A stretch of 56,867 bases of DNA, from positions 1-56,867 of the forward strand of contig JAHJQV010000050.1 in the NCBI GenBank assembly GCA_018819105.1, given 5' to 3'. The stretch's first letter is position 1; every line of letters begins with the position of its first letter. The notes below the pieces were generated by a model. That model was given only the letters and a program-made list of their open reading frames with translations. It had not been told where the DNA came from and made no database searches. This document shows positions 31,764 through 53,295 of the stretch, piece after piece. A program made the position numbers and the translations under genes. The stretch comes from Gammaproteobacteria bacterium (GTDB taxonomy: Bacteria > Pseudomonadota > Gammaproteobacteria > Xanthomonadales > Wenzhouxiangellaceae).

Positions 31764-31887
31764 GCCGTTCGGCGTCATGATAATGTCATCGACGCCGTGT
31801 AATCTAAAATAGTCTTGATTTTTCATTCACAATGTGATAAAGATCTAAGACAACAAAATGTAAGGGCATTATTCAAGGGTGAACATC

Positions 31888-34800
31888 ATGCACAGGAAAT
31901 GGGTATCTATTGCAGTCACTGCAATATCAATCGCCGTAACCGTTTATTTGGGCTATGTCTACTCTCCTGAGTCAGTGGCTCAGGATATTGACGACGACAT
32001 TCAGTTCATGGACAGTTTTGAAGACCCTCCCGCACCTCCATTTCCGTTTTTTGAACCTCCCGATCCTGCCGCCATTGCACCGCCCATAGACACCACAGTA
32101 CCTGGACATTTTGGAGATGACCTGATGTTCCTGTGCACTGCCCCAGAACCTGTTCAAAGAGGAGCGGATTGCGCCAACCTGGAACCCCATCGTGTTGCCG
32201 CTTTGCGTGGAAGGGCATTCGATGGCAATGGCAATCCATTAGCCGGCGTACTGGTGCACATACCTGATCACCCCGAGTTTGGCTATACCTTTTCGAGAGC
32301 AGATGGGTATTATGATCTGGTGGTCAACGGTGGCGGCGAACTTACATTGCAGTTCAGCAAAGATGATTTTCTAACCGCGCAAAGGGGTTTACGAGTCCGC
32401 TGGCAACAATTTGAAAGCGTCGACGATGTTCACCTTGTTCAATTGGACTCAGCCGTAAGCGAAATCCTGCTCGGGCAGGGCTTCATGCAAGTACATCAGG
32501 CCACGATGAGTAGCGATGCCGATGGGGATCGTCAGGCAACCATGCTGTTTCCGATAGGCTTACAGGCAGAAATACGCTTAGCAGATGGCAGCACACAAGC
32601 CTTGTCCACTATGAATGTACGTGCAACAGAGTACACGGTGGGCCCAAATGGGCCTGCTCGAATGCCAGCAACTCTACCTGAAGTCACCGACTACACCTAT
32701 GCCGTTGAATTGTCAGCAGATGAAGCCATCGCCTTGGCAGCAACACGGGTAGAATTCGACCAACCCATCTGGTTGTATGTAGAGAATTTTCTGGATTTCC
32801 CCGTAGGAATACCAGTGCCCGTAGGCTATTACGATTTTCAGCTACAATCATGGATACCTTCCCAGGATGGTCAAATTATCCAGATTGTTGACGAAAGCAA
32901 CGGATTTGCGCTTGTCGATGTTGATGGTGATGGCGCCGCCGAGGACCCGATAGATCTGCAGACTAACCTCAGTATGACATCTGATGAACTGATGCAGTTG
33001 GCGGTGCTCTATCAGCCTGGCCAAAGTCTTTGGCGATCTCCGATTATGCATTTCACGCCATGGGATAAGAATTGGCCCTATGGTCCTGGACCAGATGACG
33101 AGCCGCCACCTGAGCCAACAACAGACGATGATGACGACAACCCTCCACCTGACACAGAAGAAGATGACACCCCTGGTGACGATGATCCACCTGACCCAGA
33201 AGATGGCAGCAATCCGCCAGATGATAGCGAGCCAACTTCAGAAGAAGGCGGTGATACCGAACCTGAATCAACAGATCAGGAAAATCCTGATTGTATGACC
33301 GGCAGCATCATTGAATGTGAAAACCGGGTATTGGGTGAGACTTTACGGATACCGGGAACGGACTTCAATCTGACTTACCGCAGCAGCCGAAGTCGTGGTG
33401 GCAACATGGGTATCAGTCAGGCAATTGTCAGAGTACCGATTGCCAACGGGTCTGTACCGGCCTCACTTCGACGGGCATCGGTTGATATTGCTGTGGATGG
33501 AACACCAATCTCGCGTTCGATTCCCGAGCTCAGCCCATTCCAGATAGAGCGCTTCAATGTTCCGGCCGCTGATCGCTTCAGCAGAGAATATTTGATTCGC
33601 AGCGCCAAAACTGATGTGACATTGACATACTGGTATGAGCCTTTTTACTACGGCAATAGAGAAGATTTTGAAAATTCCTTCGGTATCACTGAGGGTGTAG
33701 AGTTCATAGGCAGACGAGGCGGGCTCGAACTAGGGTTGAGCAGGCGCTGGGAAACCAGCCTGAACTTCCGCTCTGGCGTGCCTGCGGCGCAAACCTATCT
33801 GGCCAAAAGTCAGAAACTGGGTGGCTGGACCCTTGACGAGCATCATGTATTTGATGCTAGAGGAGGCAAGCTATGGAAGGGCGATGGCGGTGAACGATCG
33901 GTAACCAATCTCAGCGATATTCAGATACATCAGCTTCTGCCTTTTGGCCCTGATCTGTTTGGACAGGTCAACGATATCGATGAAATCAGAGATTTTGATA
34001 TTGGACCAGATGGAAGCATTGTGGTGCTAACTGGTGGATTCATTCAGCGGCTGCTGGTGATTGATCAGGACAATCAGATCATACAAATCAGTCGTTCCTG
34101 CCAGCCACCATTTGTCACGATTCCAGCAGAGGCAAGACGTGGTGATGTGAAGTTCTGCTCTGTTGGATCTGGTAAGGAAGCCAACCGCGGCGATGATCCC
34201 CCACCTCCACCACCACCAGAAGATGAATGGTCCCAGGGCTGGTCGGTGGCATGGGGTGACAATGGACAAATCTTTCTGGGCACACAGCGACCTTTCGGAG
34301 AAGCTGACATCATACGCTTCGAGTCTGACGGAACACGCCCTCGCAGGTTCGAACTCAGCGGCCTGGAGTCGCCGGCTTGCTTCGGTCGTGTCAATGGTAG
34401 TGACTTCCATAACCGCAGACTCTTTTTCACTTGTGACAGTGACTTTGATTCCGGCTCGGCCTGGATGCTCTGGCCCAATGGATCATTGAGCCCTATTGCC
34501 GGTGCCATCATCGAACCACCTGGCGATACGCTTCCCGGCGCGCCAGTCTCGGCATTGTGGTTTGGTCTCGCTGAACCTGCAGATATTAGCGTCAGCCCGG
34601 ATGGCGATATTTATATCGCCGAAACTGGCCAGCATCGTATTCGCAAGATTGACAGTGATGGTCGTATCAGCACTATTGCCGGCACCGGCACTGCTGGCTT
34701 CGCCGGTGAGGGCAGCAGCGCAACAGATGCGCTGCTGTCAAGCCCGTCTGCCGTGGCTGCCTTGCCCGATGGCAGCCTCTACATAGCGGACACAGGCAAT

Positions 34801-37800
34801 GGCAGATTGCGCTTGGTGGACAGAGCCGGGCGAATATCCACAACAGCGGGTGGTGGAGCAAATGAATTTGTGCAATCTGGTGTAGCAGGAGCAATTCAAC
34901 TGGGCTTGTTGCGCAAGATTGGTATGCATGAGAATGGCAGTGTTGTGCTGTCTATTCACAGCCTGACACAGCTGTTACAGGTTTCATTCAACCAATTCAC
35001 GTTTGACCCTGATGCAGATGTTTACACCATACCATCAGCCAATGGCAGCGAACTGTTCATCTTCTCCCGTCAGGGCCGCCATCTTGAGACACGTTTTACG
35101 CTGACCTATGGCCTCAAGTACAGCTTCCAATACAATGCCTCAGGCTATCTGACCGCTATCATCGACGGCGATGGCAACACCACGCAAATACAGCGAGGAA
35201 CGAACAATCTCGCCGAGTCCATCATTAGCCCCTACGGCGTTGTAACCTCACTGGAATACAATACCAATGAGGATTTGTCTGCCGTGGTTACCGCGGACTC
35301 TGCGCGTTGGGAGATGGCGTATCAATCCAATACCGGTCTGTTGGTAGAGTTCAGGGATCCCAGAAACAACGCCAGTGAATACAATTACAGCCTGAGCGGC
35401 GATCTCGCCTCAAACATCAACCCTGCTGGTGGTGGCTGGAGCGTCAGCAAATGGCTTAACCGCAGTCGTGATGAGTTTCAGGTCATCATGACCAACAGCA
35501 ACGGCGACACGGCACGTCATTACGTCAATACCACCGCCACTGGTCGAGAGTATCGGCGGCGTTCATTCCCTGGCAGCAAGACCTCAGAGGTTTTAACACC
35601 AGCTTTTGAAAAAACCGTTCTGACGCCAGAGAGGACCAGTATCTACACCATTATGGGTCCCGATCCACGGTTTGGCTTACTTGCACCGATTACCGACAAG
35701 GAAATCATCAAAACACCTTTCGGTCTGGAGCGCAAAACCGAGCGTGAGCGGGTTGTGACTGCACAACAATCTGGTGCGCAACTCGGCGAACTGGACATCA
35801 TCGACAGCATTACTGTCAATGGGCGGATATGGCAGCAAAGCTACAATTCCAACTTGCTAACATGGACCTTTACCAGCCCGCAAGGGCGGGTCAGCAGCTT
35901 CTCGCTGGATCAGCAACAGCGCCCCATACGCACAAGCGCACCTGGCCTGGCAGCGATTGATTTCAGCTATGACGCTGGCGGACGCCTGGCCAGAGTTAGC
36001 CAGGGTGAGGGCGATCAACAGCGCGAAGTGCTGCTGGATTATGATGAAACCGGTTTTCTTGATCTGATCCAGGATCCTATCGGCAGAGTGACCACTTTCA
36101 TCAACGACCCAGTTGGACGCCCGGTTTTGCAAACCCGACCAGATGGCGAGATCATCAATCTCGGTTATGATCCAAGCGGAAACCTGAATGCTCTTGCTCC
36201 ACCCGGCAAGCCCGAGCATGAATTTGACTACAGCGTGCTGGACCAGCAGTCGCTGTACGTGCCCCCAGATATCGGGCTCGATACCGAGCAGACCACCTAC
36301 AGCTATGACGGTGAGCGCAGATTACTCAATATGTTAAGACCCGACGGCTTGAGTGTTGCACTGAACTACCGCAGCGCTGACCTGATTGAAAATATCCAGC
36401 TCAATCATGGTAGTCATGCCATCACTTATCATGATACAAACCTGAGTAGCTCCAGACCAGCAACCATTACATCTCCCGGCGGTGTCACACTGGAATTTGG
36501 TTACGACGGACCACTGATGACGCGCACCACCTGGCTAGGCCCGGTGGCAGGAACGCTCATATTCAGCTTCGACAATGATTTGCGCCTGGCATCCATTGAG
36601 CTCGCCAGCACAACAGGTGGTGATGTCATCAACTACGGCTATGACCTCGACAGTCTGCTCGTCAACGCCGGTGATCTCGTGCTTGCCCGCGATCCGGAAA
36701 ATGGCCTGCTCGAGGGCACCAGTCTGGATCAGGTCACCGATACCATGATTTACAATCAGTTCGGCGAGTCCATTGATTACCAGGCCACGATCAGCGGCAG
36801 CGGATTGTTTCAGCAAAGCTTCCTGCGCGACAAGCTGGGCCGTATCACGCGCAAGACCGAGACTGTCCTGGGCATCAGTCGGGTGTATGATTACACCTAC
36901 GACCTGGCTGGTCGACTGGAGACCGTGAGTGTGGACGGAACATCGCAATCAACCTATGTTTACGATGCCAACGGGAATCGCCGCAATCACATCAGTCCAG
37001 GCAACAACACCAGCGGCAGCTACGACAATCAGGATCGTCTGCTCAGCTATGGTGTCAACACCTATGAGTACACCGCCAATGGTGAGATGGTTAGCAAAAT
37101 GACCCCCGATGGAGAGACGCTGTACCAATATGACGAACTGGGCAATCTGCTCAGCGTCGAGTTGCCTGACGGTGACAGCATCGAGTACATCATTGATGGC
37201 CTGAACCGGCGCATCGGCAAAAAGGTCAATGGTGTGCTCTTACAGGGGTTGCTGTATCAGGATACCCTGAACCCGGTGGCGGAACTGGATGGCGCAGGCA
37301 ATGTCATCAGCCGCTTTGTCTATGCCAGCAAACTCAATGTCCCGGATTACATGATCAAGGGCAGTCAACGCTATCGCATCATCAGCGACCAACTGGGCAG
37401 CCCGCGATTGGTGGTCAACACACAGACCGGCGCGGTAGTTCAGCAATTGGATTACGATGAGTTTGGCAATGTGATCAGTGACAGCAATCCGGGGTTTCAG
37501 CCTTTTGGCTTTGCCGGCGGCATCGCTGATCGGGATACCGGTCTGGTCAGGTTTGGGGTGCGGGATTATGATCCTGAGACTGGGCGCTGGACGGCTAAGG
37601 ATCCACTTGGATATTCGAATATAGAAAATGAAAATTTATATTTATATGCACTGGGTGATTCAATTAATTATATAGATATTACCGGAACTGTTACGTGGCC
37701 AACTGATCATTCAGCGATAACATCTCCATTTAACTCGAATGAAGGCCGGAGCGCGCCCCACAATGGAACTGACATAAGAAACCCACTAGATGGCGATGTA

Positions 37801-38088
37801 TATTCAACTCATGATGGGACAATTATTGACATCAACTCAAATTCCAGAGGAGGCGACCAGATAATCATATTGAACACTGACGGCAGCCGATCAGGATATG
37901 CTCACACTAAAGCACATGGTGATTTGAACATTGGGGATACAGTCAGAGAGGGTGAGAGCATCGGTTTTTCTAATGGCAGCGGACAACTTAGAGGGCCACA
38001 CTTACATTATACATACAGCACATGCCAAACATGCCCAAGGATAGACCCTGAGCAGATACTTCCCGACCCAATATCATGCGGCAATTGA
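31888..38088 (+). CDS. RHS/YD-repeat protein with NHL repeats and C-terminal M23 peptidase domain
   Basis: 2066 residues. AAGGG lies nine bases before the ATG; a GTG three codons earlier is less likely. Order of parts: Sec signal or anchor (about 1-30); Pro/Asp-rich stretch; carboxypeptidase-regulatory-like domain (about 101-168); Asp/Pro/Glu-rich linker (about 400-467); RHS-type entry region beginning VLGETLRIPGTDFNLTYRSS; NHL-type repeats (about 890-990, GDIYIAETGQHRIRKID and GSLYIADTGNGRLRLVD); YD repeats (about 1065-1900); RHS core end with DPLG at 1905-1908; then a short variable tip. The tip is an M23 (LytM) peptidase with HNGTD (His1958, Asp1962), YAH and HLH (2038-2040), so all zinc and catalytic positions are present. 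The tip from about 37610 is strikingly AT-rich. Probable exported toxin; no PAAR or VgrG element is seen. Confidence 0.9.
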   Translation: MHRKWVSIAVTAISIAVTVYLGYVYSPESVAQDIDDDIQFMDSFEDPPAPPFPFFEPPDPAAIAPPIDTTVPGHFGDDLMFLCTAPEPVQRGADCANLEPHRVAALRGRAFDGNGNPLAGVLVHIPDHPEFGYTFSRADGYYDLVVNGGGELTLQFSKDDFLTAQRGLRVRWQQFESVDDVHLVQLDSAVSEILLGQGFMQVHQATMSSDADGDRQATMLFPIGLQAEIRLADGSTQALSTMNVRATEYTVGPNGPARMPATLPEVTDYTYAVELSADEAIALAATRVEFDQPIWLYVENFLDFPVGIPVPVGYYDFQLQSWIPSQDGQIIQIVDESNGFALVDVDGDGAAEDPIDLQTNLSMTSDELMQLAVLYQPGQSLWRSPIMHFTPWDKNWPYGPGPDDEPPPEPTTDDDDDNPPPDTEEDDTPGDDDPPDPEDGSNPPDDSEPTSEEGGDTEPESTDQENPDCMTGSIIECENRVLGETLRIPGTDFNLTYRSSRSRGGNMGISQAIVRVPIANGSVPASLRRASVDIAVDGTPISRSIPELSPFQIERFNVPAADRFSREYLIRSAKTDVTLTYWYEPFYYGNREDFENSFGITEGVEFIGRRGGLELGLSRRWETSLNFRSGVPAAQTYLAKSQKLGGWTLDEHHVFDARGGKLWKGDGGERSVTNLSDIQIHQLLPFGPDLFGQVNDIDEIRDFDIGPDGSIVVLTGGFIQRLLVIDQDNQIIQISRSCQPPFVTIPAEARRGDVKFCSVGSGKEANRGDDPPPPPPPEDEWSQGWSVAWGDNGQIFLGTQRPFGEADIIRFESDGTRPRRFELSGLESPACFGRVNGSDFHNRRLFFTCDSDFDSGSAWMLWPNGSLSPIAGAIIEPPGDTLPGAPVSALWFGLAEPADISVSPDGDIYIAETGQHRIRKIDSDGRISTIAGTGTAGFAGEGSSATDALLSSPSAVAALPDGSLYIADTGNGRLRLVDRAGRISTTAGGGANEFVQSGVAGAIQLGLLRKIGMHENGSVVLSIHSLTQLLQVSFNQFTFDPDADVYTIPSANGSELFIFSRQGRHLETRFTLTYGLKYSFQYNASGYLTAIIDGDGNTTQIQRGTNNLAESIISPYGVVTSLEYNTNEDLSAVVTADSARWEMAYQSNTGLLVEFRDPRNNASEYNYSLSGDLASNINPAGGGWSVSKWLNRSRDEFQVIMTNSNGDTARHYVNTTATGREYRRRSFPGSKTSEVLTPAFEKTVLTPERTSIYTIMGPDPRFGLLAPITDKEIIKTPFGLERKTERERVVTAQQSGAQLGELDIIDSITVNGRIWQQSYNSNLLTWTFTSPQGRVSSFSLDQQQRPIRTSAPGLAAIDFSYDAGGRLARVSQGEGDQQREVLLDYDETGFLDLIQDPIGRVTTFINDPVGRPVLQTRPDGEIINLGYDPSGNLNALAPPGKPEHEFDYSVLDQQSLYVPPDIGLDTEQTTYSYDGERRLLNMLRPDGLSVALNYRSADLIENIQLNHGSHAITYHDTNLSSSRPATITSPGGVTLEFGYDGPLMTRTTWLGPVAGTLIFSFDNDLRLASIELASTTGGDVINYGYDLDSLLVNAGDLVLARDPENGLLEGTSLDQVTDTMIYNQFGESIDYQATISGSGLFQQSFLRDKLGRITRKTETVLGISRVYDYTYDLAGRLETVSVDGTSQSTYVYDANGNRRNHISPGNNTSGSYDNQDRLLSYGVNTYEYTANGEMVSKMTPDGETLYQYDELGNLLSVELPDGDSIEYIIDGLNRRIGKKVNGVLLQGLLYQDTLNPVAELDGAGNVISRFVYASKLNVPDYMIKGSQRYRIISDQLGSPRLVVNTQTGAVVQQLDYDEFGNVISDSNPGFQPFGFAGGIADRDTGLVRFGVRDYDPETGRWTAKDPLGYSNIENENLYLYALGDSINYIDITGTVTWPTDHSAITSPFNSNEGRSAPHNGTDIRNPLDGDVYSTHDGTIIDINSNSRGGDQIIILNTDGSRSGYAHTKAHGDLNIGDTVREGESIGFSNGSGQLRGPHLHYTYSTCQTCPRIDPEQILPDPISCGN

Positions 38089-38089
38089 T

Positions 38090-38539
38090 ATGCGATTAAT
38101 ACTAATATACATCACATTCATGATAAGCACCTCTCCGTGCTTCAGTATCGAGTGCGATTTTGAAGATTTTCCGACCCAATCTGAACGCATAGCGGACGAA
38201 CACTGTAACAGAGCTAATGAATGGAGACAGTCTATACTTAAATCGAATATTTCTGATTTTATAAGATTCGAACCACCTGAGGCACAAGAACATATCTCGT
38301 ATCAAATACGCGATAATATTTTTGGTGTCCGTGATCTTATATTCGGAAATAATAATTCATTTAAATCAAAATTGATTAACACTGATAATATATTAATCAA
38401 ATACATACGAAACGATGGGATAAATATTTGTTATGTAAATAACATTGAGTCCAAATCTTTTTGCATGTACTGGTTCAAGCTCGGCCCATATATGTGGTAC
38501 ATTGGAACCGACTACTTAGAGGCTGAAAATATTGGATAA
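38090..38539 (+). CDS. Putative periplasmic immunity protein for the RHS-M23 toxin
   Basis: 149 residues, no family recognised. The ATG begins one base after the RHS stop codon, so translation is very probably coupled. MRLILIYITFMISTS then PCFS is a signal peptide, so the product should be periplasmic; that is where a peptidoglycan-cutting M23 toxin would act. The mature part is rich in Asn, Ile and Phe, with four cysteines that could form disulfides. Base composition is AT-rich like the toxin tip and unlike the RHS core. Position, size, export and composition all fit an immunity gene; there is no direct homology evidence. Confidence 0.7.
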   Translation: MRLILIYITFMISTSPCFSIECDFEDFPTQSERIADEHCNRANEWRQSILKSNISDFIRFEPPEAQEHISYQIRDNIFGVRDLIFGNNNSFKSKLINTDNILIKYIRNDGINICYVNNIESKSFCMYWFKLGPYMWYIGTDYLEAENIG

Positions 38540-38562
38540 TCTATATATCCGTTAAGATTGTT

Positions 38563-38880
38563 ATGTACAGAATTTTCGAAATGTCTGGTGTTCATAGTCA
38601 AGAATCATTGGCTATTGAAGAGCTATTGTACAAAAATAACATCCAATATTACATTACGGACGAACCAAATCATGGCCTTTCTAATCAAGGCATCTGGGTA
38701 ACCGATAAAAAATCATTCATTAAGGCCAGATCATTAATTGATAATTATTATGCAAATGATCTACACAAGAATCTTGACTGCAATAAGAAAAAAAATGAAG
38801 GCATTACATGGCCAGTCATTATTCTCGCCATAATTTCTTTTTGCTACTTGAGTATTTTTTATATTCGGATGATGGGGTAG
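38563..38880 (+). CDS. DUF6164-like protein with C-terminal membrane anchor
   Basis: 105 residues. The soluble part (IFEMSGVHSQESLAIEELLYKNN, YYITDEPNHGLSNQGIWV, FIKARSLIDNYYAND) resembles small DUF6164/DUF2007-type proteins of unknown role. These are normally soluble; here a hydrophobic helix (WPVIILAIISFCYLSIFYI) is appended, so the protein is probably membrane-anchored with the domain in the cytoplasm. It follows the candidate immunity gene by 23 bases on the same strand and shares its AT-rich composition, so it appears to belong to the exchanged RHS tip module. It could be a second immunity gene or an unrelated passenger. Confidence 0.6.
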   Translation: MYRIFEMSGVHSQESLAIEELLYKNNIQYYITDEPNHGLSNQGIWVTDKKSFIKARSLIDNYYANDLHKNLDCNKKKNEGITWPVIILAIISFCYLSIFYIRMMG

Positions 38881-39179
38881 AGCAATTTACCATGAACATC
38901 TATCATTCACACGCTGATAATGCACGATGTATGCCGCCATATCTGCATCACAGTGGATTGCGTTAATGCGGTCGCGCTGCCTGTATCCGAATCATAAAAT
39001 CAATCCATGACCACATCACCTTCCTGTTCTTTGAACAGGATACCTATACCAACCCTCCCAGTTACATACTCGCGCTAAAGAATGCACACACAGCCTTGCA
39101 TATCCTGACAGTCACCCTCAAGTTTTTTCGACCAAAGCTTCCTAAGTCTATCACCCGGCTCTCTGATAACTCCGCGGCC
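38881..39179. other. Intergenic stretch, nothing recognised
   Basis: About 300 bases between the RHS module and the convergent parA-like gene. A short hairpin TGTTC-TTTGA-GAACA-like element (about 39027-39040) is present; otherwise I see no gene, repeat or terminator. Short frames have no coding character. This is where the AT-rich island ends. Confidence 0.5.
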
Positions 39180-39815
39180 TCAATGCTTCACCCAGTCCAC
39201 CAGCGGATGCCATTCGCTCCAGTCCTGGCGGCACTGGTAGTAGGGCAGCTCAGCAACGCCCAGACCGGCTTCCATGGCGCGGATGTAGTTCACCGATTCA
39301 CGCAGGTGGCCAACGAAGGGAGCTTTGAACTGGTCGATGAAACCGATCAGTTCGCGATAGATAATCGTCCAGCTTTTGACCCGGTTGGCGATCAGGCCGA
39401 TTTCGCATTGCGAGCGGCTGGCCTTGCGCAGGCGGAACAGTTGATCCAGATAACGCCAGCCGCTGCGCATGTCGATCGGTGACGGCAAAAGCGGCACGAT
39501 GATCTTGTCGCAGTAAGCCAGCAGCCGCTCCAGCTCACGGGCGTTGATGGCAGCCGGCGAGTCGATGATCAGGTAGTCACAATGCGCCGGCACTGCCGGT
39601 GGCCAGCGGCGCGCTGCGAGCAGTTCGATGTAGGGATTGTCTGCCAGGCGCAGGCTGTGCCATTCGGCGCTGGATTGCTGCACATCCAGATCGGCCAGCG
39701 CAACGTCGGCCTCATAGGCCAGCCAGGCCGCCAGTGAAGTGGCAATGGTGGTCTTGCCGCAGCCGCCCTTGGGATTGACCACGGCGATTTTGCGGGTGCT
39801 GGCCGCGCGCTTCAT
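39180..39815 (-). CDS. Orphan ParA/MinD-family ATPase
   Basis: 211 residues. Deviant Walker A motif KGGCGKTT at 16-23, Walker B-like LIIDSP near residue 85, and a C-terminal part with GLIANRVKSWTIIY. Short ParA-like proteins without a partner parB occur on many chromosomes, where some position protein cargo; here there is no parB or parS visible. Its ATG follows directly after the stop of a small lipoprotein gene, which itself follows a thioesterase gene, so the three form an operon. Whether the lipoprotein is a functional partner is unknown. Confidence 0.85.
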   Translation of the reverse strand: MKRAASTRKIAVVNPKGGCGKTTIATSLAAWLAYEADVALADLDVQQSSAEWHSLRLADNPYIELLAARRWPPAVPAHCDYLIIDSPAAINARELERLLAYCDKIIVPLLPSPIDMRSGWRYLDQLFRLRKASRSQCEIGLIANRVKSWTIIYRELIGFIDQFKAPFVGHLRESVNYIRAMEAGLGVAELPYYQCRQDWSEWHPLVDWVKH

Positions 39816-40259
39816 TTACGGCGCACTGCCCAGATCCGGCAGGCCGGAATGCAGTCGCCACACGCCTGGCGGGTCATGCCATTTCCAGTTTTGATAGTAT
39901 AAAACAGTGCGTTCCCTCGCGGTCCGAAGATTGAACAGCTTCAGTTCCACCACCTGCCGGAAGCCCTGCTCGTCGTCGTCGGCGACCACCGAGCGCACGT
40001 CATAGCTGGATACCTTGTACTGGCGCAACCGGTTCATCTCCAGTGAGGTGATCGGGTTTTCCTTGAGATAGTCGGAATCGATGAAATTGAGCAGACCACC
40101 GTATTCGCTGAAGCGCAGCATGGTCTGGAAATTGTTCAGGGTCTCGTCCTGTTTCTTGCTCTTGTCGTTCATCGGACAGCCGATCAGCAGCAGGCACAGG
40201 CCAGCGGCCATCAGGGCCCGGATGCAGCCGGCAACTCGGTGGTCAGTCATGCGATGCAT
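39816..40259 (-). CDS. Small lipoprotein of unknown function
   Basis: About 147 residues. The N-terminus is a lipoprotein signal ending LLLIGC (lipidated Cys about residue 28). The mature protein (LNNFQTMLRFSEYGGLLNFID, then ITSLEMNRLRQYKVSSYDVRS and VVELKLFNLRTARERTVLYYQ) looks like a small alpha/beta domain; I do not recognise the family. The start at 40257-40259 has AGGAG ten bases upstream; an ATG three codons earlier overlaps the thioesterase stop as ATGA but would be one base from that site. The stop is immediately followed by the ParA-like ATG. Confidence 0.7.
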   Translation of the reverse strand: MHRMTDHRVAGCIRALMAAGLCLLLIGCPMNDKSKKQDETLNNFQTMLRFSEYGGLLNFIDSDYLKENPITSLEMNRLRQYKVSSYDVRSVVADDDEQGFRQVVELKLFNLRTARERTVLYYQNWKWHDPPGVWRLHSGLPDLGSAP

Positions 40260-40264
40260 TCGTT

Positions 40265-40777
40265 TCATGCTCCTTTCAAAGTGGCATAATGGCCGGTCAT
40301 GGCTGCTGCCAGACTACCATCTGCCAGCCTGATCTCACAACTCAGCGACAATCTGGCACGATCGCGCCTGGCCATGGCCTGCTGATATTTTTGCCATGCC
40401 GGCGCGGACGGCCCGGCGCAGCGGCAGCGCAGTGGCTCATACACCGGCTGCTGATAACTGTGTTCGGCAGCGGCGATGACGATGTCACGTGCCAGGCCGA
40501 TGCGGCGATTGGCCAGCCACAGCCAGCCCCAGCCGGCCAGTGTCATGAGACTGGCGCTGGCACCGCCAAATGCGCTGCCCTTGTCGTTGATGTTGGGCGC
40601 CAGCGGAGCCTGCAGCATCAAGCTGGCATGATCTGGCAGCGTGACCTGCAACTGCATGGCGGCGGCAAGCGGAATGTTGTGCAGCAGAAAGGCCTGCAGC
40701 TCGGCCGCGTCGGCAGCGCTGAAACCCGGCATCTCGGTCTGGTCATCGGCGACAAAGGTGGAGAACGGCTTGGACAT
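40265..40777 (-). CDS. YiiD C-terminal-domain type thioesterase (hotdog fold)
   Basis: About 170 residues. Resembles the thioesterase domain at the C-terminus of YiiD: FLLHNIPLAAAMQLQV, then LAPNINDKGSAFGGASASLMTLAGWGWLWL, where the Asn/Asp and the long helix form the hotdog active site. It probably hydrolyses an acyl-CoA or acyl-carrier thioester; the substrate is unknown. I chose the ATG at 40775-40777; two more in-frame ATGs (40787-40789, 40793-40795) lie upstream, and longer extensions would overlap the divergent MFS gene. First gene of the operon with the lipoprotein and ParA-like ATPase. Confidence 0.8.
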   Translation of the reverse strand: MSKPFSTFVADDQTEMPGFSAADAAELQAFLLHNIPLAAAMQLQVTLPDHASLMLQAPLAPNINDKGSAFGGASASLMTLAGWGWLWLANRRIGLARDIVIAAAEHSYQQPVYEPLRCRCAGPSAPAWQKYQQAMARRDRARLSLSCEIRLADGSLAAAMTGHYATLKGA

Positions 40778-40821
40778 CAACAGATCCATGTACATCAGAC
40801 ATTGAATTATACCCGGCACGC

Positions 40822-42138
40822 ATGAAAACCGATCAACAGCACAGCGCAAACCCGGCCTCCACACAGGCCTCGATCATGGCACGCGCGCTGATTCCGCGTG
40901 AGATGCTCAGTTGGGCGCTGATCTCGGTCACGCTGGGCGCGGTTGAAGGCGGTCTGCTCGGGGTGCTGGTCAAGACCAGCTACAGCGGCACCACATCGCC
41001 GTTGCTGATCAACCTGGCCGTGGCCGTGGTCTCCGGTGCGCCGGCATTTGCCAATCTGATCAGCTTCTGGTTCGCCAGCTGGGCGCGTGGTCGCGACAAG
41101 GTCAGACTGCTGTCACAGCTGATGTTTGCGAGCGCCTGCTGTGTGCTATTGATTGCTGCCGCACCGCGCTCGCTACCGGGACTGCTGCTGCTGATGCTGG
41201 CCAGCGTCGCCGCGCGCATGCTGTGGGCGGCCACCATCACTCTGCGCGCCACGGTCTGGCGTGCCAACTTCCCGCGCCATGTGCGTGCGCGCATCACCGG
41301 ACAGATGACCACCCTGTCATCGCTGCTGATCGCTGCCAGCTCCGCCGTGCTCGGAGCGCTGCTGGATCAGCATGCCCTGCTTGCCCGGCTGCTGTGGCTG
41401 CTCACCGCCCTGTCCGGCTTTGCCGCCGCCATGGTCTACCGGCGCGGCCGCATCCGTCGTCATCAGCACATACTCAAACTGGAACGACAGGTGGTGGACA
41501 GCGATGGCAGCAGTCATCTGTGGCAGCGTTTTCTGGCTGTGCTGCGCGATGACTTTGCCTTTCGTCGTTACATGCAGGCAATGTTCGTGTTCGGCACTGG
41601 TAATCTGATGGTGACCGCACCGCTGATCATCCTGCTTAACGAGCAATTTGGTCTGGAGCGGCTGCAGCAGGTGCTGATCACCACCTCGATTCCTCTGCTG
41701 CTGCTGGCGGTGTCGGTGCCGTTCTGGGCCCGGCTGCTGGACGGGCAGCACATCATTCCCTACCGTGCCCGGCAAAGCTGGGGCTTTGTGCTGGCGATCG
41801 GCTTTTTTGCCGCTGCCTGCATGTTCGATGCCGGCTGGCTGCTGTGGGCCGGCGGTGGCATGCTGGGCATCGCCTATGGCGGCGGCGTGCTGGGCTGGAA
41901 CCTGGGCCACAACGACTTTTCCAGCGACCACAGCTCCGAGCTTTACATGGGCGTGCATGTCACGCTGACCGGTCTGCGCGGCCTGATCATGCCGGCGGTT
42001 GGCGTGCTCATTTATGAACTGCTGGAAGCCTGGCAGCCCGGCTGGGGACGTTACAGTCTGCTGGTCCCACTGGTGCTGTCCACCGCCGGTGCCTGCTGGT
42101 TTGTGCTCATGGCCAGACAGCAGTCGAAGCCTTCCTGA
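40822..42138 (+). CDS. Major facilitator superfamily permease
   Basis: 438 residues with about twelve hydrophobic segments arranged in two halves, split by a charged central loop (YRRGRIRRHQHILKLERQVVDSDG). ISFWFASWARGRDKVR after the second to third helix is the MFS motif A-like loop. No specific transporter subfamily could be named, so the substrate is unknown; drug or metabolite export are both possible. It starts 44 bases from the divergent thioesterase gene. It is followed after 88 bases by an ArsR-type regulator with its own promoter, so it is probably a separate transcript. Confidence 0.85.
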   Translation: MKTDQQHSANPASTQASIMARALIPREMLSWALISVTLGAVEGGLLGVLVKTSYSGTTSPLLINLAVAVVSGAPAFANLISFWFASWARGRDKVRLLSQLMFASACCVLLIAAAPRSLPGLLLLMLASVAARMLWAATITLRATVWRANFPRHVRARITGQMTTLSSLLIAASSAVLGALLDQHALLARLLWLLTALSGFAAAMVYRRGRIRRHQHILKLERQVVDSDGSSHLWQRFLAVLRDDFAFRRYMQAMFVFGTGNLMVTAPLIILLNEQFGLERLQQVLITTSIPLLLLAVSVPFWARLLDGQHIIPYRARQSWGFVLAIGFFAAACMFDAGWLLWAGGGMLGIAYGGGVLGWNLGHNDFSSDHSSELYMGVHVTLTGLRGLIMPAVGVLIYELLEAWQPGWGRYSLLVPLVLSTAGACWFVLMARQQSKPS

Positions 42139-42190
42139 CCAGCGTTACCCAGCGTCTGACCGGCAATACTGCCATCTGTCACGTTCCTGC

Positions 42191-42219
42191 TTGACATCAT
42201 TTAGATAGTTAGCTAAACT
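42191..42219 (+). promoter_or_regulatory. sdpR-like promoter with palindromic ArsR-type operator
   Basis: -35 TTGACA (42191-42196), 17-base spacer, -10 TAAACT (42214-42219). The spacer and -10 are covered by TTAGATAGTTAGCTAA (42201-42216), an inverted repeat of form TTAG-N-TA-N2-TA-N-CTAA, extended by one more base pair on each side. The ATG of the regulator follows the -10 by seven bases, so the message should be leaderless. A repressor bound here would block polymerase directly. Confidence 0.85.
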
Positions 42220-42226
42220 TCTAATT

Positions 42227-42565
42227 ATGAGCAAGGTCTTCAAGGCACTGTCCGATCCAACCCGCCGCCGGGTGCTGCAACTGCTGCGCCGCGGCCCGCT
42301 GAGTGCCGGCGATCTGGCCGCACATTTTGATGTCTCCAAGCCGACCATGTCGGTGCACTTCAATGTGCTCAAGGATGCCGACCTGGTGCATGCCGAGAAG
42401 CATGGCAATTCCATCGTCTACTCGCTGAAGATGTCGGTGCTGGAGGAAGCGCTGATGGGCTTTGCCCAGACCTTGGGCATACAGGCGCACAGCATTGAAG
42501 CCGCCAGCAACGCTGAGCTGAACCCCGAACGGCCCCAAGCAGACAATAAGGAATCGCAGTCATGA
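42227..42565 (+). CDS. ArsR/SdpR-type winged-helix autorepressor
   Basis: 112 residues. Winged helix of the ArsR family, closest in pattern to SdpR: VFKALSDPTRRRVLQLLRRGPLSAGDLAAHF, then VSKPTMSVHFNVLKDADLVHAEKHGNSIVYSL. No ELCVCDL-type metal site is present, so it is not a metal sensor of the ArsR/SmtB type. It overlaps the start of an SdpI-like membrane protein by four bases (ATGA), reproducing the sdpRI pair, in which SdpI binding of a signal peptide draws SdpR to the membrane. No ribosome binding site is seen, in keeping with the leaderless transcript. Confidence 0.88.
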   Translation: MSKVFKALSDPTRRRVLQLLRRGPLSAGDLAAHFDVSKPTMSVHFNVLKDADLVHAEKHGNSIVYSLKMSVLEEALMGFAQTLGIQAHSIEAASNAELNPERPQADNKESQS

Positions 42566-43149
42566 ACCCGAATCATTATCCATTCATCTGGCACCGGCTT
42601 GCAGTACAGGCGCTGATACTCGCTGGCCTTGTGCTGGGTGTGCTGTTGTGGCGCCTGCGCCCGGAACAGTCGCTGACCTGGCTTACCGGCATGCTCACTC
42701 TGCCGGTGTGCTGGGGCATGCTGCGGGTGCTGGGCGCGCTGGGTGAGAATCAGTCCGTATTCAGCCGCCAGCAACTTTACAACGCGCTGGTGGTGGCCGG
42801 CTTGATGGTTGTGGGCGCGCTGCTCGCGGTTACCATGACCACACTGGAATGGCTGCCGGAAAACTGGTCGGACCGCTATGGCATGCTGATCAGTGCGCTG
42901 GTGCTGGTGGTGATCGGCAATGGCCTGCCGAAAAAGATTGAACCCGGTTGCTCACGCAGCCGTGGTCAGGCCCTGCAGCGTCTGTTCGGCTGGACTTTTG
43001 TCGTCGGCGGGCTGCTACTGGCGGCGCTTTGGCTGTCGCCATTGAGCATGCACATTGCCCGCCCGCTCAGCATGCTGCTGTATGGGCTGATGCTGGCCAG
43101 TTGTGTGATCGGCTACCTGCGGATCAGGGCAAGCGACCGCAATGCATGA
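42562..43149 (+). CDS. SdpI-like integral membrane protein
   Basis: 195 residues with about six hydrophobic segments. It resembles SdpI/YhfL-type membrane proteins through the loop IGNGLPKKIEPGCS preceding a helix, and through its pairing with an SdpR-type repressor. In Bacillus SdpI gives immunity to the SdpC killing peptide and signals to SdpR; proteobacterial versions are mostly uncharacterised. Translation is coupled to the repressor. I see no sdpABC-like toxin genes in the window, so any inducing signal would come from elsewhere. Confidence 0.78.
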   Translation: MNPNHYPFIWHRLAVQALILAGLVLGVLLWRLRPEQSLTWLTGMLTLPVCWGMLRVLGALGENQSVFSRQQLYNALVVAGLMVVGALLAVTMTTLEWLPENWSDRYGMLISALVLVVIGNGLPKKIEPGCSRSRGQALQRLFGWTFVVGGLLLAALWLSPLSMHIARPLSMLLYGLMLASCVIGYLRIRASDRNA

Positions 43150-51711: not shown

Positions 51712-53295
51712 TCAAAGCGTCTCAAAGCCATCACGAAACAGCAGATCAGACTTGTCCGGGATGAATTCGGTGCTGGCCAGTGCCACCCCGGCCAGACCAT
51801 TCTGCAGGCGATAATAAAACGCCTGCTGGCCAAGATTGTTGAATGCGTTCTGGGCATTGTGGGTGTAGCGCATGGTATTGGGAAAGAAAGGCAACGCCAC
51901 CTCTATATCGGCGAGGACGTCACCGGCAAAGGGTTGCCCGGTGCGTGCCACCAGCGCCAGGCCGAACTCGGGATCAAACAGGAACAGCGCTTCACGGCCA
52001 AGTCCTTCGGCGATGACAAAGGCGGTAAACATCACCTGATCCTGCTCATTGAGAGCAAAGGTGAACGGATCGCGCACCTCCAGACCGATCGGCTCCGGCA
52101 GCATATCAAAAGCGCTGACGATGGGAATGGTGGCCCCACCACGACGCATCAGCAGTTGCTGCACATTGCCGAGGCTGGTGCTAACCACCGCACCGTACAC
52201 CAGTGTGTCGTTGTCATTGATGCGCACATCCCCGGTGAAATTGAAAATCGTTCCGGTGGGCGCAGTGCCGCCGGTGCGTCCGACTTCAGCCAGCGTCACG
52301 CCATCACCCTGAAACAGCCCGAGGTAATCCTGGGTGATGTCGTCAACGTTAAACAAAGTCAGCATCTGCCCCAGGTTGTTCTGCTGTGCTGCCAGTCCAA
52401 CACCGGCAATCAGCGTACCCAGCCCGTCTGGTGCCGGTTCGCCGGTGTGCAGCATCTTGACCACATCCACACCATCGCTGGCATAGATACCGACATTAAA
52501 TCCGGAGCCCTGTGTGTTCAGCGCAGCCGCAGCCCTGCCATTGTTGTTCAAGGTGGCGTTTTGGAATGCGATATTGGCGACGGTGCGGCCATCGGGCAGC
52601 AGCTGTCCTGAAAGCAGCAATGGGGTCAGCGCGCTGTCACCTGCTCGCAGAATGCCAAACTGCTGCGGCACTCCGTCAACCACAATATCGCTGATAAAAC
52701 TGATCTCGCCAGGATCGTTGGCCTGCATGGTAAGGGGCAGGAATGCGGCGATGTTGGCAACATTTCCAGCGCCGACGACATCACCTTCCTGCACCAGCAG
52801 CTCTATGTTGCTGCCATCGCCTCGATATACCGCCACCTGGCCAACATTGTCTGGTGCCGCCACCACCAACCGACCACTGGCGTCGATGCCGTATGGCCGG
52901 TTAAATTGTGGTGTATTGGCTGCCACAGCAGCGATGTCCAGGCGCAGCAGGTTGCCATCGGCAGAAGGCTCACCACCACGCAGCACCTTGTTCATACCAT
53001 TGCCATCGGCAACAAAAAAACCCCAGTCATCCAGTGGACCTGGATCGGTCGTGGCCAGCAGATTGGCCCACACCAGCACCTGGCCGGCATCGTTTAATAC
53101 CGGAAACAGGATGGTGTCGGAAAACACACCGTTGCCATCTGGAGCGGGCTGCCCGGTTTGCACCAGCAGTTCCGTGGTAACGATGAAGTCGGGACCAACT
53201 GTCTGGCCATGGCCATACCCGGTCACCAGCAGACCACAAACAAGCAGCAGGCGCTGCCGGATACTAACAGGCGACAACAACAGACGAATGGACAT
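51712..53295 (-). CDS. Secreted beta-repeat protein (DUF7453-like)
   Basis: 527 residues. Signal peptide (LLLVCGLLVTGYGHGQ) followed by repeats of about 60 residues in which the pattern G-x-PAPDGxGxF, then an alternating beta strand, and N-x-x-G-x-V/A-x-F recurs (for example LLVQTGQPAPDGNGVF, HTGEPAPDGLGTL, RTGGTAPTGTIFNF). This matches repeat proteins listed as DUF7453 or similar. It ends DLLFRDGFETL; a final D-G-F-E motif recurs at the C-termini of secreted proteins in some Gammaproteobacteria and may be a sorting signal. GGAG stands seven bases before the ATG. Convergent with the Cys-rich marR. Function unknown; extracellular location is likely. Confidence 0.8.
   Translation of the reverse strand: MSIRLLLSPVSIRQRLLLVCGLLVTGYGHGQTVGPDFIVTTELLVQTGQPAPDGNGVFSDTILFPVLNDAGQVLVWANLLATTDPGPLDDWGFFVADGNGMNKVLRGGEPSADGNLLRLDIAAVAANTPQFNRPYGIDASGRLVVAAPDNVGQVAVYRGDGSNIELLVQEGDVVGAGNVANIAAFLPLTMQANDPGEISFISDIVVDGVPQQFGILRAGDSALTPLLLSGQLLPDGRTVANIAFQNATLNNNGRAAAALNTQGSGFNVGIYASDGVDVVKMLHTGEPAPDGLGTLIAGVGLAAQQNNLGQMLTLFNVDDITQDYLGLFQGDGVTLAEVGRTGGTAPTGTIFNFTGDVRINDNDTLVYGAVVSTSLGNVQQLLMRRGGATIPIVSAFDMLPEPIGLEVRDPFTFALNEQDQVMFTAFVIAEGLGREALFLFDPEFGLALVARTGQPFAGDVLADIEVALPFFPNTMRYTHNAQNAFNNLGQQAFYYRLQNGLAGVALASTEFIPDKSDLLFRDGFETL

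What the first reader, a model, noticed from the sequence alone, without database searches (positions are those of the whole stretch)
31888..38088. Teneurin-like RHS protein ending in an M23 metallopeptidase
Order of parts: Sec signal, carboxypeptidase-regulatory-like domain, acidic Pro-rich linker, NHL repeats, YD repeats, RHS core end with DPLG, then a tip with complete M23 zinc and catalytic residues (His1958, Asp1962, HLH 2038-2040). NHL plus YD repeats recall teneurins. No PAAR or VgrG part is present, so delivery would be by Sec plus an unknown step. A peptidoglycan-cutting tip on a self-exported RHS cage is a strong candidate for an undescribed contact-dependent or surface toxin.
Basis: partly seen in the sequence, partly recalled or inferred. 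Interest (0 to 1): 0.78.

Follow-up and report, generated by a model that had tools for sequence, protein, structure and literature searches.

The report
Bacterial teneurin toxin with wall-cutting tip
This bacterium carries a bacterial cousin of the animal nerve-wiring protein teneurin, a hollow protein shell whose swappable tip is a complete cell-wall-cutting enzyme, most likely a weapon against rival bacteria; the class was described in 2026, but a tip of this kind looks new, and a short tag near its front hints at how such shells leave the cell.

Summary
ORF 31888-38088(+), 2066 aa, has TTR, TIP-like, FN-plug, NHL and YD-shell regions and an intact M23 peptidase tip. Its best solved relative is the Bacillus inaquosorum teneurin-like protein (TLP; 924 bits). 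Bacterial TLPs were published in 2026 (PMC13018210) as polymorphic toxins, so the class is not undescribed; 'M23' does not occur in that paper's main text.

The tip is a cassette: the closest relative (L076) is 71-89% identical in every 100-residue block to residue 1900, then carries an unrelated tip. Among 55 TLPs, 1485 of 1485 shell-end pairs are related but only 72 tip pairs. TseH-like and Tlde1-like tips also occur. The next gene (149 aa, signal-like N-terminus, GC 34%, no relatives found) is the immunity candidate.

Export: no T6SS sheath gene, but a T2SS gene. A motif FxDGFE, mostly at the C-terminus of exported proteins (22 sites in this genome, 0 in the reversed control), occurs as FMDSFE just after this TLP's signal sequence. 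In 299 same-order genomes its abundance tracks T2SS GspL (24 of 24 genomes with at least 30 sites have a strong hit). My searches found nothing in print on the motif. Activity, immunity and export are untested.

The parts
31888..38088 (+). gene of the teneurin-like protein, 2066 aa
31888..31980 (+). Sec-type signal sequence, about residues 1-31; first cysteine of the protein is residue 83, so no lipobox
   Evidence: inspection; cysteine list; no predictor available
32005..32022 (+). FMDSFE, residues 40-45, near-match of the FxDGFE tag
32185..32433 (+). teneurin TTR domain, residues 100-182
32434..33084 (+). TIP-like region, residues 183-399
   Evidence: aligned with BiTLP (residues 61-399 on BiTLP 360-696); conserved in alignment A1
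33085..33255 (+). acidic, proline-rich linker, residues 400-456
   Evidence: sequence
33256..33927 (+). FN-plug region, about residues 457-680 (far end approximate), with C469 and G472|S473 at the places of BiTLP C719 and the G723|S724 cut
   Evidence: roles from PMC13018210
34567..34818 (+). NHL repeats recognised by Pfam, residues 894-977
35017..37686 (+). YD/RHS shell, residues about 1044-1933; self-cleavage residues R1892, D1905, D1930
37690..38085 (+). M23 peptidase tip, residues 1935-2066, 14.1 kDa
38090..38539 (+). candidate immunity gene, 149 aa, signal-like N-terminus, no known family
38563..38880 (+). DUF6164 gene, GC 33%; may or may not belong to the cassette

Best explanation
A polymorphic toxin of the bacterial teneurin-like (TLP) class armed with an M23 peptidoglycan endopeptidase. 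Sec exports it; the NHL/YD superfold forms a shell; the RHS core (R1892, D1905, D1930) cuts the tip free inside it, by analogy after T1934. The shell reaches the outside, most likely by type II secretion. On an unknown trigger the tip is released at a rival cell and cuts the peptide cross-links of its wall. The adjacent exported 149-aa protein protects the maker's own wall in the periplasm. Shown by sequence or model: architecture, intact M23 site and fold, conserved self-cleavage residues, tip swapping, no T6SS sheath gene, a T2SS gene. Inferred: enzyme activity, encapsulation, immunity, T2SS export, release and target.
For: Best solved relatives are the two BiTLP entries, with TTR+TIP, FN-plug and core end aligned piecewise. 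M23 site invariant, fold supported. Tip swap against L076; 72 of 1485 tip pairs against 1485 of 1485 shell-end pairs related. TseH-like tips on two other TLPs and a Tlde1-like tip on a third. Next gene one base downstream with a signal-like N-terminus, as after both TseH-like tips; AT-rich tip and next gene. No T6SS sheath gene, T2SS GspL present.
Against: No activity data. The immunity candidate has no relatives and no readable fold. The second core motif is DITG, not DPxG. T2SS export rests on gene presence and a correlation that is not corrected for relatedness. The published paper reports toxic tips that act inside cells (ART) as well, so the class does not always act on the wall.
Confidence: 0.7

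Rival explanations
1. A surface wall-remodelling or scavenging enzyme: the M23 tip digests wall fragments or dead cells for growth or food, and the tip is not a weapon.
For: M23 domains are common housekeeping enzymes: six in this genome with this one. No toxicity has been shown.
Against: A shell that is otherwise 71-89% identical carries an unrelated tip in L076; tips of the class are hypervariable; a housekeeping enzyme would not need this.
Confidence: 0.12
2. The protein is a toxin, but the 149-aa gene is not its immunity gene (unrelated AT-rich insert; protection comes from wall modification or from caging in the shell).
For: No relatives, no interpretable fold; a second small AT-rich gene (DUF6164) follows.
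Against: One-base gap, signal-like N-terminus where an M23 toxin would hurt its maker, and the same arrangement after the two TseH-like TLP tips. The 2026 paper found a gene directly downstream of almost all TLPs, and that caging alone did not protect E. coli.
Confidence: 0.25
3. An adhesion or signalling protein of the cell surface, or a weapon against eukaryotes, with the M23 tip acting on something other than bacterial peptidoglycan.
For: Teneurin folds mediate adhesion in animals, and the 2026 authors leave communication roles open.
Against: The closest M23 structures are peptidoglycan hydrolases; polymorphic tips with a small exported neighbour fit conflict between bacteria.
Confidence: 0.08
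4. A decayed or inert gene left by a recent tip exchange.
For: The second core motif departs from DPxG.
Against: 2066 codons without a stop, all M23 metal and catalytic residues kept, and DITG-like second motifs recur in other intact TLPs (for example DVTG, DVNG, DING, DSTG).
Confidence: 0.05

Closest known systems
Bacterial teneurin-like proteins (TLPs), type member BiTLP of Bacillus inaquosorum (PMC13018210; PDB 9ifo, 9pt5)
   Same: TTR, TIP-like region, FN-plug, NHL, YD shell, core cleavage residues, plug cysteine and G|S site, short polymorphic tip, small gene directly downstream
   Different: M23 tip (word absent from that paper's main text; it lists unspecified 'peptidases'); second motif DITG; [quoted passage not shown] FxDGFE-like motif after the signal
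T6SS Rhs effectors (for example RhsA, Tse5, Tse15)
   Same: RHS shell with self-cleaving core and swappable C-terminal toxin
   Different: no PAAR or VgrG part; no T6SS sheath gene in the genome; Sec-type N-terminus; teneurin TTR, plug and NHL parts
T6SS M23 effectors such as Tpe4 and Tpe18 of Acinetobacter baumannii (PMC6833914, passages seen)
   Same: M23 domain as a predicted peptidoglycan-cutting toxin
   Different: those listed are LysM/NlpD-type proteins of about 670-850 aa without an RHS or teneurin shell
Animal teneurins
   Same: TTR, NHL and YD-shell homology
   Different: animal proteins are membrane receptors with an external Tox-GHH domain and lack the core cleavage motif (PMC13018210)

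Membership tests
Bacterial TLP | FN-plug, NHL and YD-shell in this order in one frame | tested here: met
   FN-plug by alignment to BiTLP 707-965 (E 1.5e-17; no Pfam plug model matched); NHL and YD-shell by Pfam. The paper's own three HMMs were not available.
Bacterial TLP | TTR and TIP domains before the plug (TIP in 96% of TLPs) | tested here: met
   residues 61-399 align to BiTLP 360-696, E 5e-98; TTR_TEN1-4
Bacterial TLP | RHS core aspartyl self-cleavage residues | tested here: met
   R1892, D1905, D1930 at BiTLP R2103, D2116, D2140; but second motif DITG instead of DPxG; cleavage itself not tested
Bacterial TLP | polymorphic C-terminal toxin of about 15 kDa | tested here: met
   14.1 kDa tip; swapped in L076; 38 tip clusters in 55 TLPs
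Bacterial TLP | downstream gene that neutralises the tip | not testable with these tools
   gene present one base downstream; binding and rescue need experiments
M23 metallopeptidase (Pfam PF01551) | H-x3-D and HxH metal ligands plus catalytic His | tested here: met
   H1958, D1962, H2038, H2040, H2006 invariant in 30 rows; score 57.2 against cut-off 28.7
M23 metallopeptidase (Pfam PF01551) | M23 fold | tested here: met
   model pLDDT 77.6, Foldseek to M23 structures; the alignment given to AlphaFold2 was itself made of M23 domains
M23 metallopeptidase (Pfam PF01551) | hydrolysis of peptidoglycan peptides | not testable with these tools
   needs enzyme assay
T6SS Rhs effector | PAAR/VgrG part or other T6SS loading domain, and a T6SS in the genome | tested here: not met
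   no such domain; T6SS_VipA 0 matches in the own genome, 98.68% complete
T2SS substrate | Sec signal and T2SS-dependent export | tested here: inconclusive
   signal by inspection; GspL present; dependence needs a mutant

The most novel reading that the evidence does not exclude
Bacterial teneurins of this order are type II secretion cargo marked by an undescribed short localisation tag, F-x-D-G-F-E. Ordinary Sec-exported proteins wear it at the very C-terminus; a toxin shell whose C-terminus must stay caged wears it just after the signal sequence. This would supply the missing export or anchoring step of teneurin-like toxins and define a protein-sorting signal that lacks the hydrophobic anchor of tags such as GlyGly-CTERM.
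Probability: 0.35. Interest if true: 0.78.

Novelty: new member of a known kind. Interest (0 to 1): 0.52.

Why it matters
The 2026 paper presents bacterial TLPs as relatives of the ancestor of animal synaptic receptors and says that their delivery is unknown. A TLP with a wall-cutting tip, and relatives with TseH-like and Tlde1-like tips, suggest that some TLP tips work on the envelope of the target and give a mechanism that can be tested directly: peptidoglycan cutting blocked by an exported partner. The FxDGFE tag, if real, would make TLP export testable and would mark up to dozens of exported proteins per genome in part of a large bacterial order.

Tried and rejected
Other M23-tipped TLPs: none among the 54 tips scanned (window plus 53 of 54 loci; L090, 36 aa, left out by me). 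Plasmid tblastn with the tip: the 30 rows shown of 2775 are ordinary M23 proteins. Relatives of the immunity candidate: none in 369 class and 299 phylum genomes apart from itself (overlapping samples), plasmids or viral contigs. Its single-sequence fold is unusable (pLDDT 48.8) and was not searched. L093 and L107 tips looked to me like wall enzymes (SleB-like, M15-like); Pfam did not support either, so they are not counted. Two other weak Pfam hits among tips (VWA7_N 1e-4, an ATP synthase subunit 0.008) were not pursued. Downstream-gene statistics use a crude hydropathy rule and mechanical ORF choice: 51 of 55 loci gave an ORF, 29 called cytosolic, 11 multi-TM, 7 signal/anchor, 4 single internal TM; only named cases are used.

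Rows dropped: 95 ORFs match the TTR+TIP profile and 85 the core profile; 56 match both; L149 and L042 run off their contigs, which leaves 54 loci plus the window. The search for related loci kept the best 80 of 406 relatives. One of the 22 tag sites (L201) could not be read.

Papers. PMC13018210: abstract, Results parts 1 and 2 of 3, Discussion, one Methods section and found passages; supplements not seen. PMC3482391, PMC6833914, PMC10763514: passages only. All others: search listing with the start of the abstract. Claims that something is not in print rest on (M23 with Rhs or polymorphic toxins; teneurin with toxin, peptidoglycan, secretion; the tag), in an open-licence library only.
Full report
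What is there. The ORF at 31888-38088(+) encodes 2066 aa without interruption. Pfam gives, in order, the teneurin TTR domain (100-182), teneurin NHL (894-977), teneurin YD-shell (best stretch 1486-1907) and Peptidase_M23 (1957-2044); NCBIfam adds the RHS-associated core (1856-1933). Among solved structures the two best matches are both 'Teneurin-like protein' (9pt5, 9ifo; E about 1e-276), ahead of animal teneurins (best about 1e-79) and Rhs-family proteins (best about 1e-22). Piecewise, residues 61-399 align to BiTLP 360-696 (TTR and TIP), 457-713 to 707-965 (FN-plug region) and the core end to 2038-2145. R1892, D1905 and D1930 fall on BiTLP R2103, D2116 and D2140; C469 and G472|S473 fall on C719 and the G723|S724 cut (what these BiTLP residues do is from PMC13018210). 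The second core motif reads DITG rather than DPxG. By analogy the tip would be cut free after T1934.

The tip. Residues 1935-2066 (14.1 kDa) carry H1958, D1962, H2006, H2038 and H2040, invariant in an alignment with 29 M23 domains of same-order genomes. The AlphaFold2 model, made with that alignment (pLDDT 77.6, pTM 0.75), matches M23 structures such as StM23, V. cholerae ShyA, LytM, DipM and lysostaphin (top rows E about 1e-8, TM about 0.7-0.76). The tip has three cysteines near its end; none of the 29 others has any cysteine in the aligned stretch. In BiTLP the plug cysteine is bonded to the tip. Of 31 TLP ORFs here with a recognisable plug site, 30 have the cysteine and 29 have it together with a tip cysteine, so a C469-to-tip bond is a specific prediction, not a result.

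The tip is a cassette. The TTR+TIP alignment found 406 relatives in genome contigs, of which the best 80 were kept. The nearest, L076 (contig titled Marinicaulis sp.), is 71-89% identical in each of the nineteen 100-residue blocks of residues 1-1900; DNA similarity (75.8%) runs from window 31834 to 37676, from 54 bases before the start codon to codon 1930, and the tip beyond is unrelated. In 55 TLPs (window plus 54 loci) the end of the shell is related in 1485 of 1485 pairs, the tips in 72 of 1485, in 38 clusters, the window tip being a singleton.

Peptidoglycan-type tips recur. Of 54 tips scanned (window plus 53 of 54 loci), Pfam finds TseH in two (L032 5e-15, L114 3e-21), M23 in this one, Tlde1 in one (L108, 1e-5, below its curated cut-off), two weak hits of unclear meaning, and nothing in the rest at E 0.01. 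That TseH and Tlde1 act on peptidoglycan is from recall; the Pfam entry itself calls TseH a T6SS effector. Some TLP tips therefore share toxin families with T6SS effectors of the periplasm.

Neighbour and site. One base after the stop begins a 149-aa ORF with a hydrophobic, signal-like N-terminus; after both TseH-like tips the next gene also begins with a signal or anchor (gaps 2 and 20 bases). After the Tlde1-like tip the next ORF is a 238-aa multi-TM protein. GC is 52.9% in residues 1-1906 of the gene, 46.2% in the tip, 34.2% in this gene and 33.0% in the DUF6164 gene after it, against 62% in the two flanking genes tested and 58.5% in the window. No relative was found, and the single-sequence model is unusable. 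It is an immunity candidate by position, signal and composition only. In the same-genus genome G001 the next block (window 39175-43049) is conserved at 70-75%, but the 2.8 kb of contig beyond it has no match in the window and holds other ORFs, so the site is variable.

Export. The genome has no T6SS sheath gene and has GspL of a type II system. Reading the N-termini of relatives led to a motif, F-x-D/S-G/S-F-E, ahead of the TTR domain in 10 of 85 N-terminal regions (shuffles: mean 0.02, maximum 1 of 85); the window has FMDSFE at residues 40-45. A DNA pattern for FxDGFE hits this genome 22 times and its reversed control 0 times. Of 21 readable sites 16 lie within 6 residues of a C-terminus. Of seven tagged frames complete at their N-terminus, five (L197, L198, L199, L209, L210) show clear signal-like N-termini by eye; L208 and L211 do not show one clearly. 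In two genomes of other families 15 of 20 fetched sites are within 6 residues of the C-terminus, and one of the other five (L225) lies directly behind a signal-like sequence, as in TLPs. Among ten tagged proteins scanned are an ExeM/NucH-type extracellular endonuclease, a GSDH protein, FG-GAP proteins and a Calx-beta protein; no NCBIfam sorting-tag model matched.

Tag and T2SS. Over 299 same-order genomes the tag count is 0 to 77 and the control 0 to 4 per genome, both strands summed. Of the 91 genomes with at least 5 sites, 79 have a strong GspL hit (E < 1e-10), against 42 of the other 208; all 24 genomes with at least 30 sites have one (counts copied by hand). TTR_TEN over its cut-off occurs in 15 genomes, 13 of them tag-rich (78 of 284 among the rest; Fisher 6e-6); with E < 1e-10 it is 10 of 12 (Fisher 2e-4). 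Against this: the genomes are related, which inflates every p-value; 12 tag-rich genomes lack a strong GspL hit, six of them under 90% complete; many genomes (for example in f1 g6 and f2 g310) have GspL and few tags; only 10 of 85 TLP N-termini carry the motif; L032 and L033, from a tag-rich genome, do not; G609 and G031 have a TTR hit with 0 and 3 tags. So T2SS is not sufficient for the tag, and the tag is not universal in TLPs. My searches found nothing in print on the motif.

How it most likely works. Shown by sequence or model: architecture, intact M23 site and fold, conserved cleavage residues, swapped tips, no T6SS sheath gene, a T2SS gene. Inferred: Sec export, shell folding and self-cleavage in the periplasm, passage outside by T2SS (perhaps tag-guided), an unknown trigger, hydrolysis of cross-links in the rival's wall, and protection of the maker by the exported 149-aa protein.

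Placement. It is a bacterial TLP by every sequence feature of the class that I could test. The class, its polymorphic toxins and its immunity genes are published (PMC13018210), which lists 'peptidases' among predicted tips and a Ghiorsea bivora 'peptidase' tip whose family the text does not name; 'M23' and 'peptidoglycan' do not occur in its main text, and its supplements were not seen. M23 T6SS effectors are known (PMC6833914) on other scaffolds. Hence: a new member of a known kind, with a tip type that looks new; the side observation, the tag, may be the more novel part.

Noticed in passing
own genome, 22 sites; in the window 51721-51738(-), frame ending FRDGFETL; TLP residues 40-45 at 32005-32022: FxDGFE tag, mostly at the extreme C-terminus of exported proteins, sometimes right after the signal sequence; abundant in 91 of 299 same-order genomes and correlated with T2SS GspL.
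   Followed up: partly
L031 (own genome, contig 17) 7786-9504(-) and 10090-12606(-): Two further RHS core pieces, 51% and 44% identical to this shell, each with a different tip and a same-strand ORF starting at its end; no TTR part was found next to them. They look like orphan tip cassettes.
   Followed up: partly
L032:6194-6604(+), L114:11691-12107(+), L108:15311-15733(+): TLP tips of the TseH family (two) and a Tlde1-like tip (one, below cut-off): toxin families of T6SS effectors carried by teneurin-like shells.
   Followed up: partly
window 31834-39174 against L188 (G001 contig 9) 5025-7836: In the same-genus genome the DNA next to the conserved ParA-like block is unrelated to the TLP region, so the locus is a variable site.
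   Followed up: partly
L134, L087, L076: TLP loci on metagenome bins titled Klebsiella pneumoniae, Akkermansia muciniphila and Marinicaulis sp.; the titles may be wrong for these contigs.
   Followed up: no
L083, L082, L111, L040, L096, L125, L091, L150, L084, L142, L147, L153, L146, L131 (tips): The largest tip cluster, 14 of 55, is a glycine-rich type shared by Paenibacillus and several Gram-negative TLPs; probably the 'outer membrane protein-like' tips of the 2026 paper, not checked.
   Followed up: no
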